Assembly: GCA_016786465.1 (NCBI GenBank)
Contig: JAEUWC010000029.1
Span: 146,363 to 185,865 of the forward strand
DNA: 39,503 nt
Reading direction: 5' to 3'
From: Bdellovibrionales bacterium
GTDB lineage: Bacteria > Bdellovibrionota > UBA1018
The notes under the pieces: generated by a model
Told to the model about the DNA's origin: nothing
The model's database searches: none
What the model saw: only the letters and a program-made list of their open reading frames with translations
Made by a program: the position numbers and the translations under genes
Shown here: piece by piece, positions 33,388 to 39,285 of the stretch
Layout: every line of letters starts with the position of its first letter
How positions within the stretch are numbered: the first letter of the stretch is position 1

Positions 33388-34185
33388 TCAATGCCAAGTC
33401 TTCGGGTCGGAATCATCATCGTCGGCTTCGACTTTAACCGTGGGGTACCCCTCCTTTTTGGCCGAATCGTTATCGATGACCAGGCGAAGGTGTCCCTTGG
33501 CCTGGGAAGCCGACTTTTTCTTTCCAAATTTTGGCAGGTTCAGGCCCCCAAAGCCCTTTCCGGGGTTTTTCTTTTTCATGACTGCCAGGGCGGCACGAAC
33601 CCATAAAAACACAAAACCCGTAATCATTCCCGTCAGATGGGCTGCCCCGGATAGGCCATTGCGTCCCGAAAAAACGACCGTCATCAGCTGAACCCCAGCA
33701 AAGATCCAAGTGATGTACTTGGCCTTCATGGGGATCAACATCATCAAAAGCATGGTGCGTTCGCCAAAAATCAGCCCATACGCCATCAAAAGGCCAAAAA
33801 TCGCGCCGGAAGCCCCAACCATGGGCGTACCCAAGCCTTCTCCCCCCCAAACAAAAGCCTGAAGAAGAAGGTAAACCACGCCCGAAGTGACCGCGCAAAG
33901 GAAGTAGAACTTCAGAAAGAAGCTTCGACCCCAGACCGATTCCAGTTCGGATCCAAAGAATAGAAGCATGATCATGTTCATCAAAAGATGGGTCACATCT
34001 GCGTGCAAAAACGGGTACGTGAAAAGCTGCCAAAACCGCTGATGAATCATGAACTGGGAAGGTACCAATCCCAGCCAGGAAATCAGGTTTCCGCCCATGA
34101 ATTGATCCACGGTCTGCTGAACCAAAAATCCAGCCAGACACGCGATCATGATCCACTTGACGGTCGGGGTTAATCGAATCGCCAT
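33388..34185 (-). CDS. Rhomboid-family intramembrane serine protease
   Basis: The 265-aa protein has six predicted membrane segments. The active-site Ser lies in GASGAIFGLLMAYG and the catalytic His in AHLTGMITGFVF; the HLLMNMIMLLFFG motif supplies the oxyanion Asn. It cleaves membrane-spanning substrates within the lipid bilayer. After the last segment comes a tail of about 70 residues, first basic and Gly/Lys-rich (KKKNPGKGFGGLNL) then acidic (EADDDDSD), not part of the core fold. Its ATG overlaps the epimerase stop by one base (TAATG). Confidence 0.93.
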   Translation of the reverse strand: MAIRLTPTVKWIMIACLAGFLVQQTVDQFMGGNLISWLGLVPSQFMIHQRFWQLFTYPFLHADVTHLLMNMIMLLFFGSELESVWGRSFFLKFYFLCAVTSGVVYLLLQAFVWGGEGLGTPMVGASGAIFGLLMAYGLIFGERTMLLMMLIPMKAKYITWIFAGVQLMTVVFSGRNGLSGAAHLTGMITGFVFLWVRAALAVMKKKNPGKGFGGLNLPKFGKKKSASQAKGHLRLVIDNDSAKKEGYPTVKVEADDDDSDPKTWH

Positions 34186-34619
34186 TAGCCCTGGGCCTCC
34201 ATGACTTCGATCAAGATTCCCCCCGCCGTTGCAGGATGAATGAAATTCACACGCATCTGGTGGGCGCCTTTTTTAGGAGCATCATAGGTCAGCCGGTATC
34301 CGGCCTTTCGAAGGGTCGCGCAAAGCGGATCCAATTCTCCGGTCTTCACTTGAAACGAAAGGTGGTGAATTCCTGGTCCGCGTTTTTCAATGAATTTCGC
34401 GACGGTACCTTCGGGGTCGGTGACTTCTAAAAATTCCAACTGGGTTTGCACGACCGGCAAAGGAAGAAAGTGCGTGCGAACGCCTTGTTCGGGAACGTCT
34501 TCTTGGTTTTTGAATGAAAGCCCTAGGATTTGAAACAGCTGCGCAAGCTGAGGAAGCGCCGAAACTGCGATGCCGATATGATTCAGGAAAGCGGGTTGCG
34601 AGAGCCCGGAAGTTGCCAT
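34185..34619 (-). CDS. mce: Methylmalonyl-CoA epimerase (VOC fold)
   Basis: The 144-aa protein matches methylmalonyl-CoA epimerase along its length: LNHIGIAVSAL (first metal His), TQLEFLEV, KFIEKRGPGIHHLSFQV (second His) and NFIHPATAGGILIEV (metal Glu and a characteristic family ending). It would interconvert the (R) and (S) forms of methylmalonyl-CoA in propionate and branched-chain metabolism. The mutase is not in the window. Other VOC proteins share the fold, but the GIHHLSF and HPATAGG motifs favour the epimerase. Confidence 0.85.
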   Translation of the reverse strand: MATSGLSQPAFLNHIGIAVSALPQLAQLFQILGLSFKNQEDVPEQGVRTHFLPLPVVQTQLEFLEVTDPEGTVAKFIEKRGPGIHHLSFQVKTGELDPLCATLRKAGYRLTYDAPKKGAHQMRVNFIHPATAGGILIEVMEAQG

Positions 34620-34844: not shown

Positions 34845-35771
34845 TTAACTTACCGCGGCGCGCAACCGCTTTTTCAGCTCGAATTGCTTCGATTTTAGCC
34901 ATTCTAGAATCTTTGCGGCCTCGTCTTCCGTCAAAAACAGAACGTAAAGTGAAACCATGACGACGCCAAAGTGCGGCAAGCTCATGGTGACGGCGATCAA
35001 AGCATGGAAAAGGACCCCAAAACCCAGCACCCACTTTCGAATGGCTGGAATCCAGATGATGGCCGGAAAGTAAACTTCCCAAACCAAGGGAAGGTATGTC
35101 CCCAGGACAATCAGAAAAGGGAAATGGGATAGCCAGGTGACGTCGATTCGTCCCAATTGTGGATTTGAAATCGCAAGCCACATGGCTTCGCCTCGCCACC
35201 ACGAAATTCCCTTCAGCTTTTCAATTCCTGAATAGGCGTAAATCACGCAAAGCTGCAGCTGCGCAAAACGAAGGCCCAGTGATCGCAGTTCGGTTTTCCA
35301 ATTCGAAACCTTCACGTGGCCGACCCCGGCACCGAAGATCAGATAGAAAAGAAAGAAAATGGAAATCAGGTCCATCCCGAAGGCGATGGAAACGTTTCGG
35401 TGAATGAAAGAAACGTGAAGGGCCAATGCGATCGCGGCGGCGACCCGTTGGAACTTTCCAAAGATGATGCAAAGCAAGCTGCCCAAAAAAATCAGGTAGC
35501 AGGTCCAAACCCAAAGCATCGAAGAATTCAGCATCAAGATCGAAAAACGACCGCTCATTTCAATCATGTCGTCGATCTTGGCGGGGGTCACCAAACCTTG
35601 CGGGCCATAGAAAAAATCCAGGTCCTGCACCAAGGTAATGTAGTGACTGAAAAGCACGATCGGAAAAAAGATTTCAAAAAGACGGTAGCGATGAGCCGAT
35701 TCTGTTTGAAACGCGAACCCAACCCAACCTTTCCATAGATCTGCGGCGGTTTTTTTTAGCCAACGTTTCAT
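34845..35771 (-). CDS. HTTM-domain membrane protein (vitamin K carboxylase-like fold)
   Basis: The 308-aa protein has about seven to eight membrane segments. The segment QLCVIYAYSGIEKLKGISWW followed by GEAMWLAI is the most recognisable HTTM signature; the N-terminal YRLFEIFFPIVLFSHYI and DFFYGPQGLVTP also fit. HTTM proteins are related in fold to vitamin K-dependent gamma-carboxylases, but most bacterial members have no known reaction. It overlaps the upstream 184-aa gene by 4 bp. Together with that gene and the Met/Gly-rich protein it forms a compact three-gene unit. Confidence 0.8.
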   Translation of the reverse strand: MKRWLKKTAADLWKGWVGFAFQTESAHRYRLFEIFFPIVLFSHYITLVQDLDFFYGPQGLVTPAKIDDMIEMSGRFSILMLNSSMLWVWTCYLIFLGSLLCIIFGKFQRVAAAIALALHVSFIHRNVSIAFGMDLISIFFLFYLIFGAGVGHVKVSNWKTELRSLGLRFAQLQLCVIYAYSGIEKLKGISWWRGEAMWLAISNPQLGRIDVTWLSHFPFLIVLGTYLPLVWEVYFPAIIWIPAIRKWVLGFGVLFHALIAVTMSLPHFGVVMVSLYVLFLTEDEAAKILEWLKSKQFELKKRLRAAVS

Positions 35772-36322
35772 TTTTTCTGCCCCTGTTCATCTTGGGCTAA
35801 AGGACAGATGTGAACCGAAATTTCTCGTCGATCCAGATTTTCCAGGTCTTTCACTTTCTTTGATCCACTGGCTGCTTCTTCAATGGTGACCCATGGATAA
35901 ATCGACGCCCAGAACCTGATTGCGTGTGCCTGTTTTTCCTGGCGGCACAGGTAGGGTCCAAGGGTGGATGATGGGCGCTCTTTCGCCATCCCGATATAAC
36001 GGGCCGACGTCATTCGGCGGTTCTGCCGCTCGCGAAAAAGGAACGGCGATTCAAATTCCGGCATCATCCCGCGACCGACGCGTCCGCCGTTCTTATCCAA
36101 AAGTTCCCATTCGACGTACATGGCTTGGCCAGGATTTGGCGAAAAGAAGTTCCAGAACGAACCAAATTCAAAGGCGTTCAAATAGGGTTTCATGATGGGC
36201 TTAAGCCACCCACCCAATGGAGTTTCAGGATTCGGCGCGACCGCGATGACGATTCCGTGAAAGATCGCGAAAGCCGTGAAAAGCGTCCATCTTAGGGAAC
36301 TGCTTCTTGTCTTCGCGCTCAT
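35768..36322 (-). CDS. Single-membrane-segment protein paired with the HTTM protein
   Basis: The 184-aa protein has one N-terminal membrane segment (WTLFTAFAIFHGIVIAVA) and a soluble part with the motif FWNFFSPNPGQAMYVEWEL. A WxFFxPxP motif followed by a beta strand occurs in small proteins encoded beside HTTM genes. The soluble part is probably periplasmic. It starts 10 bp after the Met/Gly-rich gene and overlaps the HTTM start by 4 bp (ATGA), so the three should be cotranscribed and this protein may be the HTTM partner subunit. Function unknown. Confidence 0.75.
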   Translation of the reverse strand: MSAKTRSSSLRWTLFTAFAIFHGIVIAVAPNPETPLGGWLKPIMKPYLNAFEFGSFWNFFSPNPGQAMYVEWELLDKNGGRVGRGMMPEFESPFLFRERQNRRMTSARYIGMAKERPSSTLGPYLCRQEKQAHAIRFWASIYPWVTIEEAASGSKKVKDLENLDRREISVHICPLAQDEQGQKK

Positions 36323-36332
36323 CCTTGCATGC

Positions 36333-38285
36333 TTAGAACGAACGACCGTCCATCATTCCGCCGTTCATCATGCCACCGTTGTCCATCATGGCGCCGCCGC
36401 CTGCGACTCCAGCGCCGACTCCGATACCGAAGGTGCCAATCAGCTGTCCGCCGATTCCGCCACCGCCGCCAGCCCCGTAGACAGGGTAACCGTAGCCAGA
36501 CGAATAGTAACCGCCTTGAATAATCTGCTGATAGCGCATGGTCGCTTCCATGATTTGCTGTTGAGCGATCATCGCGTTCTGTTGCTGTTGAGCCGCGCGC
36601 TGAGCATTCAACATCTGCGAGTTCATCGAAGCCTGCATTGCGGCCCAATACTGGTACTGCATACCCATCATCCCGCCGTTCATCATGCCCATGCCGCCGG
36701 GGTAACCCATCATCATGCCCATGCCGCCGGGGTAACCCATCATCATGCCAACGCCGCCGTTCATCATGCCCATGCCGCCGGGGTAACCCATCATCATGCC
36801 GCCCGGATACATTCCGCCGTTCATCATGCCCATGGCGATGCCACCGGGCATTCCCATCATCATTCCGGGGTAACCGCCGTTGATTCCACCGTTGATGCCG
36901 CCGTTAATGATCCCTTGAATCAGGCCCATGCCGCCACCGGGGTAACCCATCATCATCCCCATGTTGTAGCCACCGGGATACATACCGCCTGGCATGCCCA
37001 TCATCATTCCCATGTTATAGCCGCCGGGATAACCGCCTGGGTAACCACCCGGATAACCACCGGGGTAGCCCATCATCATGCCGCCTGGCATGCCCATCAT
37101 CATTCCCATGTTGTATCCGCCCGGATACATCCCGCCAGGCATGCCCACCATCATGCCCATATTGTATCCGCCAGGCATCATTCCGCCGTTCATCACGCCG
37201 TTGAAGCCGCCAAAGTACATCGGAATGCCCCAGCCCATGCCCCAAGGCATGCCGCCGCCACCGATTCCGGATCCAATCAAAGTTCCGATCAAACCGCCGC
37301 CACCCATCAGGCCGCCGTTCATCATCATACCGCCCGACAGCCCCATCATGCCGCCGTATAAGCCCATCATTCCACCGGACATGCCCATCATGCCGCCTGG
37401 GTAGCCCCAGCCCCAACCGCCGCCAGCAGTTGCGCCGATATAACCGCCACCCCAACCGCCCATTCCGATGCCCATCATCCCCATTCCGTAAAGCGGCGGG
37501 GCCGAACAAGGAATGCCGATTTCTTTGCATTGCTCAAGGTAGCCTTGATAGTTGCCAGAAAAAGCCCTTAGGCTTTTGTTGTACGAAGAAAACTGCATCG
37601 CTCCCAACGCGAAGCCCGCGACGGTTGGCAGAGCAGACAATAGGTAGTCGCCGACTTTCGGTTCGCGCGGCTTCATCGCGTCTGCCAATGAACATTCTGG
37701 ACAAGCGCGCTGTGCTTCAAGCGCGTCTTTCGCCAACTGAAGGCGCTCTTCTTTTTTTGCTTTGATCTGCGACTCGACGTCTGCCAGTTCAACTTCGATT
37801 TCTCTTCTCTTGGACTTCTTGGCGATTGCACCGCAGGCGCCCGGAGCAATGGCAGTCAAACATGCGGTTTGTTCCGCTGGATCGCTGAACCAAGTGCTAG
37901 AAAAAGTCGTGGGATTCGTCGCCTGAGTTTCAGAAATAGTGACGCATTTATCGTCGTCGGATCGACCCGCGACAACAACAGGTGGCGTTCGCTTCGCTAG
38001 AACCATCAAGCAATGCGTGTGGCAGGTCGTGCATGGGGTGGTCAGACCTTCGCCCGGAAAAGTCTGTTCGATTTTCTGTGCGCTTGCCGAACCGACCGCA
38101 GTGAGCTTGGCTTTGACTTCGGTCTTTCGCTTTTCAAGCTCTTTGGTTTCTTTGTCCAAAGTTTCGATCTCGGATCGAATTGAACCGTAAACCCCCTGAG
38201 CAATGGCATGTGGAATCGGTGTTCCAACCGTAGCTATCGAGAAACACAGCATCCCTACCCACACAGCGTTGATCTTCTTGATCAT
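36333..38285 (-). CDS. Secreted Met/Gly-rich repeat protein with cysteine-rich coiled-coil head
   Basis: From the ATG at 38285 (GGGAG 7 nt upstream) the product is 650 aa; a GTG further upstream is ignored. A signal peptide ends HAIA-Q. Residues ~30-230 alternate charged coiled coils (ETKELEKRKTEVKAKL; EVELADVESQIKAKKEE) with about nine cysteines, including CTTCHTHC, which contains the CxxCH haem-c pattern. Residues ~260-545 are almost only Gly, Met, Pro, Tyr and Asn, in variants of YPGG, NGG, GMMMG and MPGGMYPGGYNMG. A Gln-rich helix (QRAAQQQQNAMIAQQQ) and a Gly/Met tail follow. I recognise no family. It could be a surface polymer or adhesive, or bind soft metals through methionines. It leads the run that includes the HTTM gene. 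Confidence 0.88.
   Translation of the reverse strand: MIKKINAVWVGMLCFSIATVGTPIPHAIAQGVYGSIRSEIETLDKETKELEKRKTEVKAKLTAVGSASAQKIEQTFPGEGLTTPCTTCHTHCLMVLAKRTPPVVVAGRSDDDKCVTISETQATNPTTFSSTWFSDPAEQTACLTAIAPGACGAIAKKSKRREIEVELADVESQIKAKKEERLQLAKDALEAQRACPECSLADAMKPREPKVGDYLLSALPTVAGFALGAMQFSSYNKSLRAFSGNYQGYLEQCKEIGIPCSAPPLYGMGMMGIGMGGWGGGYIGATAGGGWGWGYPGGMMGMSGGMMGLYGGMMGLSGGMMMNGGLMGGGGLIGTLIGSGIGGGGMPWGMGWGIPMYFGGFNGVMNGGMMPGGYNMGMMVGMPGGMYPGGYNMGMMMGMPGGMMMGYPGGYPGGYPGGYPGGYNMGMMMGMPGGMYPGGYNMGMMMGYPGGGMGLIQGIINGGINGGINGGYPGMMMGMPGGIAMGMMNGGMYPGGMMMGYPGGMGMMNGGVGMMMGYPGGMGMMMGYPGGMGMMNGGMMGMQYQYWAAMQASMNSQMLNAQRAAQQQQNAMIAQQQIMEATMRYQQIIQGGYYSSGYGYPVYGAGGGGGIGGQLIGTFGIGVGAGVAGGGAMMDNGGMMNGGMMDGRSF
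36655..37500 (-). repeat. Coding tandem repeats (Met/Gly-rich region)
   Basis: The DNA is built of imperfect units encoding MMMGYPGGMG, MPGGMYPGGYNMG and YPGG. A 30-bp unit is duplicated head to tail at 36687-36746, with a further copy starting near 36767. Four 12-bp YPGG units stand at 37021-37069. Units vary mainly at third codon positions, which implies selection on the protein sequence together with repeated unit gain and loss. Confidence 0.85.
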
Positions 38286-38588: not shown

Positions 38589-38733
38589 TGAAATCACTCC
38601 TTAGTTCAGTATCTTTACACAGAATTCTTTGTTAGCCTGGATAAGGTACGATTTCTACGGATGAAATCGGCCAATGTCAACGCCCTGTCTGGGGCTATGG
38701 GAACTGCAGATTGCAGATTGCAAGGAGGCACCG

Positions 38734-39285
38734 ATGGAATCATCTTCTCATCCTACTTTCGAAACCGGCGCGACTGTCATTTACGCTCTACACGGCAAAT
38801 GCAAGGTCGTTGGAATTGAAGAGCGCACGGTTGCCGGCCAGACCATTCCCTTCTACAAACTTGAAATTCAAAAGTCGGCCCTGTCGCGCTCAGCGCGCCA
38901 AGAGCCGGCCATTTGGCTTCCCGTTAAGACCGCGCCTTCACGCGGGCTTCGTGCACCGATGGATGCCGCCGTCGCTGAAGCGGCTCTAGAAGTCCTTTCC
39001 AGCCGAGAGTTCTACTTTCCGCTGAACGAAACTTGGAACAAAATGCTTCCGCAGCTGGAAGCCTGCATGAACCGAGAGGGTTCGATCGGGATCGCTAAGG
39101 TCGCTAGCTACCTGCACGTCCTGAAGAAGAAGCAGGTCGTTTTCGCTCCTGAAGTTGCGCGTTTCAGTGAACAGGTCTGGAAGACGATTTCGCGCGAAGT
39201 CTCGGATGCATTGGGAATTTCTTTGAAGATGGTGGAAGAGCGCATCGAAAAAGGACTTCGCCACAAGCTTTTGCCGCATAATTAA
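38734..39285 (+). CDS. CarD/CdnL-family transcriptional regulator
   Basis: From the ATG at 38734 (AAGGAGG 5 nt upstream) the product is 183 aa. The N-terminal domain (TFETGATVIYALHGKCKVVGIE, RTVAGQTIPFYKLEI) is the Tudor-like RNA-polymerase-interaction domain shared with TRCF. The helical C-terminal domain (about 95-183) should contact promoter DNA. CarD/CdnL proteins bind the polymerase beta subunit and stabilise open complexes, notably at rRNA promoters. The conserved upstream-fork Trp is not obvious. The gene converges on the 5S rRNA gene, separated by a shared terminator. An upstream in-frame ATG (38674) is rejected because of the strong ribosome site. Confidence 0.88.
   Translation: MESSSHPTFETGATVIYALHGKCKVVGIEERTVAGQTIPFYKLEIQKSALSRSARQEPAIWLPVKTAPSRGLRAPMDAAVAEAALEVLSSREFYFPLNETWNKMLPQLEACMNREGSIGIAKVASYLHVLKKKQVVFAPEVARFSEQVWKTISREVSDALGISLKMVEERIEKGLRHKLLPHN

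What the first reader, a model, noticed from the sequence alone, without database searches (positions are those of the whole stretch)
34845..38285. Three-gene unit: Met/Gly-rich secreted protein, one-TM partner and HTTM membrane protein
The genes are 10 bp apart and then overlap by 4 bp, in one direction. HTTM proteins share the fold of vitamin K-dependent carboxylases, so a membrane enzyme beside a secreted low-complexity substrate would be a sensible maturation pair. The unit is not a named system as far as I know. What is seen: gene order, overlaps, HTTM signature. What is inferred: that the HTTM protein modifies or handles the Met/Gly-rich protein.
Basis: partly seen in the sequence, partly recalled or inferred. 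Interest (0 to 1): 0.68.

Follow-up and report, generated by a model that had tools for sequence, protein, structure and literature searches.

The report
Split carboxylase-like membrane pair beside glycine-rich protein
Two adjacent bacterial genes encode a membrane protein with the fold and catalytic lysine of the human vitamin K-dependent carboxylase and a small partner, and the secreted glycine-rich protein next to them is a common neighbour but not a partner they always have.

Summary
The three genes are as described. C (308 aa) is a genuine HTTM/vitamin K-carboxylase-fold protein: Pfam's HTTM model misses it, but its predicted structure matches all 16 listed human carboxylase (GGCX) entries (Z up to 20.6), and invariant K185 aligns with GGCX's catalytic K218. 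B (184 aa, one TM) is its constant partner, distantly related to SdpA-like and DUF5819 proteins that sit beside other HTTM genes. A is a new family: secreted, cysteine-rich N-terminal half, fast-evolving glycine-rich tail; methionine richness is species-specific. In the window's own family A-B-C is linked in all nine assessable genomes with the pair. But A sits at the same site without B-C in at least six genomes (five gain/loss changes on a tree), and B-C is elsewhere linked to ScpAB (10 loci), a menaquinone operon (2) or a lipoprotein (2). A's tail has almost no Glu, so gamma-carboxylation there is excluded. Best reading: B and C are two subunits of one HTTM-type membrane enzyme acting on exported substrates, A being a possible, non-obligate client. 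New variant of a known kind; mechanism unproven.

The parts
36333..38285 (-). Gene A: secreted Gly/Met-rich protein, 650 aa (signal peptide, Cys-rich coiled-coil N-terminal half, Gly-rich tail, Gln-rich helix near the C-terminus)
37485..38195 (-). Conserved N-terminal half of A (after the signal peptide): invariant Cys88, 142, 151, 195, 198 and a GDYxxGGL-type hydrophobic segment
   Evidence: alignment A3; hydropathy
36336..37538 (-). Gly/Met-rich tail of A, 401 aa, 34% Gly, 20% Met, about 1% Asp+Glu; composition varies between relatives
36520..36660 (-). Gln-rich helix within the tail (QRAAQQQQNAMIAQQQIMEATMRYQQ), recognisable in most relatives; end points approximate
35768..36322 (-). Gene B: one-TM partner, 184 aa, alpha/beta extracytoplasmic domain
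36131..36154 (-). Invariant B motif W57-N-F59-F60-S-P62-N-P64, proposed counterpart of GGCX W399-D-M401-M402
   Evidence: invariant columns; weak structural support
34845..35771 (-). Gene C: HTTM/vitamin K-carboxylase-fold membrane protein, 308 aa
35208..35240 (-). C motif Y178-AYSGIEK185-LKG188; K185 aligns with GGCX catalytic K218
34185..34619 (-). VOC / methylmalonyl-CoA epimerase-like gene, constant downstream neighbour of the site
   Evidence: TIGR03081 E 2e-32, just below cut-off
33388..34185 (-). Rhomboid-family membrane protease, constant downstream neighbour
38674..39285 (+). Divergent conserved gene (read as CarD-like from its sequence; no NCBIfam hit) that marks the other border of the A site in relatives

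Best explanation
B and C are two subunits of one inner-membrane module of the HTTM/vitamin K-carboxylase superfamily, in effect a two-gene relative of the carboxylase core. C supplies the helical bundle with the quinol-type pocket and the catalytic base K185 (GGCX K218). B, anchored by one TM helix, places its invariant WxFFxPxP segment on C and offers an extracytoplasmic alpha/beta domain that holds an exported substrate. The module modifies or matures exported proteins, probably by base-initiated redox chemistry rather than classical Glu carboxylation, because the GGCX Glu-binding NNH160 appears as HRN in C. In this lineage the pair lies behind A, which holds the site with or without it, and is probably co-transcribed with it; A may be a client but does not need the pair. 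Shown: gene arrangement, pair conservation, C fold (predicted), conserved Lys, decoupling of A. Inferred: that B docks on C, the chemistry, the substrate.
For: C model pLDDT 88.8 matches GGCX over residues 6-300 at Z 20.6, with all 16 listed GGCX entries ranking first and the next unrelated chain at Z 6.7. The profile alignment of C with fused bacterial HTTM proteins and GGCX has probability 98.5%, E 1.6e-15, and brings the K185 motif onto the GGCX K217/K218 motif; K218 is the base that deprotonates vitamin K hydroquinone (PMC12589487). K185 is invariant in 17 sequences. B is next to C wherever it occurs in the 97 relatives, often with a 4-bp overlap (L104, L109, L110, L112, L115). B-like proteins pair with HTTM-type genes in Bacteroidota, Actinobacteria and Obscuribacterales, with B to Bacteroidota profile E 3e-11 and a DUF5819 link. 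SdpA and SdpB are both required to process exported SdpC (PMC6818787). The pair lies in a menaquinone gene cluster in two families.
Against: I found no published enzyme activity for any small HTTM pair. The window's genome has no MenA, no MqnA/D, and its only UbiA-type match is heme O synthase, so the quinol cofactor has no identified source. B against the GGCX propeptide-binding lobe has no profile support and only Z 3.2 by structure, which is noise level. Linkage to ScpAB (10 loci) does not suggest an exported substrate.
Confidence: 0.5

Rival explanations
1. One reading: A-B-C is a dedicated maturation unit, C (with B) modifying or processing the Met/Gly-rich protein A, as SdpAB does for SdpC.
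For: Linked, co-directional and closely spaced in all nine assessable genomes of the family that carry the pair. Other pairs also have a secreted protein directly upstream: a Cys-rich one at the second pair in the same genome (L061), a lipoprotein in L048/L049, a large Gly/Ser-rich lipoprotein in L060.
Against: A persists at the same site without B-C in six or more genomes, with five changes on the tree. 19 of 27 close pairs lack A. A homologues with and without the pair show no obvious difference in architecture, Cys count or composition.
Confidence: 0.2
2. B-C is an independent small operon of envelope or quinone metabolism that sits behind host operons (A, ScpAB, men, lipoprotein) for expression; linkage to A is transcriptional hitch-hiking only.
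For: Placed beside unrelated operons in at least four contexts. Placement at the men cluster in two families, last gene in L054 and first in L053, fits a menaquinone-linked role.
Against: Does not explain why the A linkage is kept in several genera of one family. Most genomes with the pair lack MenA.
Confidence: 0.2
3. True gamma-glutamyl carboxylase acting on Glu residues in the N-terminal coiled-coil half of A.
For: GGCX fold and catalytic Lys in C; A's N-terminal half holds 28-48 acidic residues.
Against: GGCX N158-N159-H160, which binds the substrate Glu, aligns with H124-R125-N126 in C (register approximate). No propeptide-binding domain in the C chain. No naphthoquinone pathway found in the genome.
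Confidence: 0.05

Closest known systems
Vitamin K-dependent gamma-carboxylase (GGCX) and the HTTM superfamily (PF05090)
   Same: Fold of C over residues 6-300 (Z 20.6), catalytic lysine in the motif YxxxGxxKL, downstream helix pattern
   Different: C is half the length and lacks the propeptide-binding and arch domains; PF05090 does not hit it; the NNH Glu-binding residues appear as HRN; a separate one-TM subunit B is encoded next to it
Bacillus SdpA-SdpB-SdpC (and YitPOM)
   Same: Three-gene logic: exported protein, small partner, HTTM-type membrane protein; C hits the SdpB model weakly (E 3e-7)
   Different: Well below the SdpB cut-off; B hits no SdpA model; A shows no match to SdpC and differs in length and composition; A occurs without the pair
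DUF5819 (PF19136) proteins
   Same: WxxFxPNP motif; an Ilumatobacter protein found by the B profile scores 27.0 bits against the DUF5819 cut-off of 27.1 and lies next to an HTTM-type gene
   Different: B itself gives no Pfam hit; function of DUF5819 unknown
Fused bacterial HTTM proteins such as that at L095:6590-7858 in the same genome
   Same: Same TM domain and lysine; the SWxMM linker resembles B's WxFF
   Different: TM domain and C-terminal domain in one chain; phmmer finds GGCX directly (E 1e-12)

Membership tests
HTTM / vitamin K-carboxylase superfamily | GGCX-type transmembrane fold | tested here: met
   Z 20.6 to 9wf3, 278 residues; all 16 GGCX entries first; Foldseek E 3e-5
HTTM / vitamin K-carboxylase superfamily | Catalytic lysine equivalent to GGCX K218 | tested here: met
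   K185 invariant and placed on the K217/K218 motif by profile alignment
HTTM / vitamin K-carboxylase superfamily | Match to Pfam PF05090 over cut-off by the window protein | tested here: not met
   No hit at E<=5; 7 of 17 aligned relatives hit, best 2.8e-19
Gamma-glutamyl carboxylase | Glu-binding residues N159/H160 | tested here: inconclusive
   Profile alignment puts R125/N126 there, but a gap lies nearby
Gamma-glutamyl carboxylase | Propeptide-binding domain in the same chain | tested here: not met
   C ends after the TM domain; B as a detached version is only weakly supported
Gamma-glutamyl carboxylase | Vitamin K (naphthoquinone) made by the organism | tested here: not met
   No MenA or MqnA/D in a 97% complete genome; uptake not excluded
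SdpABC | SdpB model over cut-off | tested here: not met
   30.1 bits against 178.4; no genome of 97 relatives over cut-off
SdpABC | SdpA homologue as partner | tested here: inconclusive
   No SdpA model hit for 16 B proteins; B related to small Bacteroidota partner proteins by profile, E 3e-11, themselves without a model hit
SdpABC | SdpC-type precursor in the operon | tested here: not met
   A has no NCBIfam or Pfam match beyond noise
SdpABC | Immunity/repressor genes (SdpI, SdpR) | not tested
   Neighbours in the window are VOC, rhomboid, TrxB and LysS on one side and a divergent gene on the other; no SdpI or SdpR search was run
DUF5819 (PF19136) | Pfam match of B | tested here: not met
   No hit; only via the intermediate L156 protein

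The most novel reading that the evidence does not exclude
B and C form a two-chain, quinol-dependent, carboxylase-like enzyme of bacteria: C is the GGCX transmembrane core, B is the detached last TM helix, linker and propeptide-binding lobe, with B's invariant WxFF inserted between the quinol and substrate pockets like GGCX W399-x-M401-M402. It would be a split form of the vitamin K carboxylase that performs a new post-translational modification on exported proteins, encoded in the menaquinone operon in some lineages.
Probability: 0.22. Interest if true: 0.8.

Novelty: new variant of a known kind. Interest (0 to 1): 0.5.

Why it matters
I found no open paper that assigns an activity to the small one-TM/HTTM pairs of bacteria. 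The compact pair, its invariant lysine, and its place in a menaquinone gene cluster in two families give a concrete hypothesis (quinol-dependent modification by a split carboxylase-like enzyme) that can be tested by mutating one residue. It also corrects the simple substrate-enzyme reading of the operon: the glycine-rich protein lives at this site with or without the pair.

Tried and rejected
Heme binding by A's CTTCHTHC: rejected, most relatives have CxxC without the following His. B as a homologue of the GGCX propeptide-binding domain by profile: no support in two attempts with 4 and 8 reference sequences; structure gives Z 3.2 with the expected register 58-173 to 398-490, kept as a hypothesis only. 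Direct sequence search of the C and B profiles against the PDB: nothing. Rule that the pair needs a menaquinone pathway: rejected, most genomes with the pair lack MenA. VKOR as a co-occurring partner: uninformative, present in 51 of 58 genomes. Ubiquinone as substitute: the only UbiA-like hit in the genome is heme O synthase. Literature searches for DUF5819, small HTTM pairs and bacterial homologues found no functional study.

Full report
Observation. On the minus strand, A (38285..36333, 650 aa), B (36322..35768, 184 aa) and C (35771..34845, 308 aa) follow each other with a 10-bp gap and a 4-bp overlap. A has a cleavable signal peptide by its sequence and is 23.8% Gly and 13.7% Met. B has one TM helix at its N-terminus and an alpha/beta domain.

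What C is. Pfam's HTTM model does not hit C at E<=5. The evidence for HTTM is a sub-threshold match to the SdpB model (E 3.4e-7), PF05090 hits in 7 of 17 aligned relatives, and above all the fold: the AlphaFold2 model (pLDDT 88.8) matches every GGCX entry listed, Z up to 20.6 over 278 residues (model 6-300 on GGCX 42-330), while the best unrelated chain has Z 6.7. The profile alignment of the C family with eight HTTM proteins including GGCX gives probability 98.5%, E 1.6e-15, and brings the motif YSGxEK185LKGxxWWxGEA onto GGCX YFIAGVKK218LDADWVEGYSM. K218 is the base that deprotonates vitamin K hydroquinone in GGCX, and N159, H160 and Y395 hold the substrate Glu (PMC12589487). K185 is invariant in all 17 C sequences, whereas the NNH160 triplet is replaced by HRN (H124-R125-N126) in the alignment, with a nearby gap that makes the register approximate. 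So the base appears kept and the Glu site appears changed (inference).

What B is. B is next to C in all 16 genomes where it was found. Its invariant residues include W57, F59, F60, P62, P64, C126 and C173. It has no family hit, but its profile finds small one-TM proteins beside HTTM-type genes in Chryseobacterium, Aquimarina, Ilumatobacter, Tateyamaria and Obscuribacterales. The Bacteroidota ones align to the B profile at E 3e-11, and the Ilumatobacter one reaches 27.0 bits on DUF5819 (cut-off 27.1). B is therefore a member of a wide, mostly nameless class of HTTM partners. I considered that B is the detached TM9-linker-propeptide-binding lobe of GGCX: the order WxFF, two strands, helices, strand matches GGCX W399-x-M401-M402 and its following elements, and the structural aligner put B 58-173 on GGCX 398-490, but only at Z 3.2, and profile alignments gave nothing. 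This stays a hypothesis.

What A is. A is a family without any Pfam or NCBIfam match, with a conserved N-terminal half (alignment A3: invariant Cys88, 142, 151, 195, 198 and a GDYxxGGL-type hydrophobic segment), a Gly-rich tail of changing flavour (Met 1-20%, Tyr 5-17%, Gln up to 20%), and in most members a Gln-rich helix near the C-terminus. In 16 of 17 homologues the tail has 0-1% Asp+Glu (4% in L046, where the computed tail start falls inside the N-terminal half), so Glu carboxylation of the tail is not possible. A structural or surface role is likely but untested.

Conservation test. In the window's own family (f1) the pair is found in nine genomes where the upstream side can be read, and all nine have A there: G000, G004, G007, G015, G017, G019, G024, G028, G032 (three of them as Gly-rich C-terminal pieces at contig ends). 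The order is A-B-C-VOC-rhomboid-TrxB-LysS-LolC-LolD. But A stands at the same site, between the divergent CarD-like gene and VOC/rhomboid, without B-C in G001 (two tandem copies), G020, G022, G036, G042 and G013 (in G013 the next gene is the rhomboid; the divergent gene was not seen there or in G042), with a similar but looser picture in G018. G036 and G042 carry a B-C pair elsewhere in the genome. On a tree of five flanking genes the presence of B-C at the site changes five times (several branches are weakly supported). Conversely B-C occurs without A: behind ScpA-ScpB in ten loci, in a menaquinone gene cluster in two families (L054: MenF-D-H-B-A-C-E-B-C, one strand; L053: B-C-thioesterase-MAP-MenF-D-H-A), behind a lipoprotein in two, and in Planctomycetes. 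Of 27 close pairs in named contigs, 8 have A or a Gly-rich stretch upstream (one of these, L106, taken from its longer record L045) and 19 do not.

Mechanism. I think B and C form one membrane module: C with pocket and catalytic lysine, B with an extracytoplasmic domain that holds the substrate, as SdpA and SdpB are both needed to process exported SdpC (PMC6818787). The linkage to menaquinone genes in two families points to a quinol cofactor, but the window's genome has no MenA, no MqnA/D and no UbiA other than heme O synthase, so the cofactor here is open: uptake, another electron donor, or a gene missed in a 97% complete assembly. That A is a client in this lineage is possible (secreted proteins also lie directly upstream of the pair in L048/L049, L060 and L061) but A plainly does not need the pair.

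Novelty. The parts belong to known superfamilies (HTTM, SdpB-like, DUF5819-like); the compact pair with A, ScpAB or men genes is not described in the papers I could search. I rate it a new variant of a known kind.

Noticed in passing
L053:2240-11936 and L054:2391-11987: B-C pair is the first (L053) or last (L054) member of a co-directional menaquinone gene cluster in two different families.
   Followed up: yes
L109, L116, L117, L120, L122, L123, L124, L128, L153, L154: In ten Bdellovibrionales-type contigs the B-C pair follows ScpB directly, as in L058; no reason known for a chromosome-condensation neighbour.
   Followed up: no
L061:7105-8950 (G000:C8): The window's genome has a second HTTM/one-TM pair, preceded by a secreted Cys-rich 164-aa protein on the same strand.
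   Followed up: partly
L095:6590-7858 (G000:C29): A full-length fused HTTM protein in the same genome that finds human GGCX directly at E 1e-12; it lies in a neighbourhood of type IV pilus-like genes.
   Followed up: partly
G000 whole genome: No MenA, MqnA/D or UbiA (other than heme O synthase) was found in a 97% complete genome, so its quinone source is unclear.
   Followed up: partly
L083:3173-6490, L084, L085: Tandem or multiple copies of A in genomes without B-C; A genes often break assemblies at their repeats.
   Followed up: partly
window:38493-38588: Small minus-strand ORF encoding a very Lys/Arg-rich peptide (MGRGRKNKTQKMKNRKRQAKKKARDKAKRSK) between A and the divergent CarD-like gene.
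   Followed up: no
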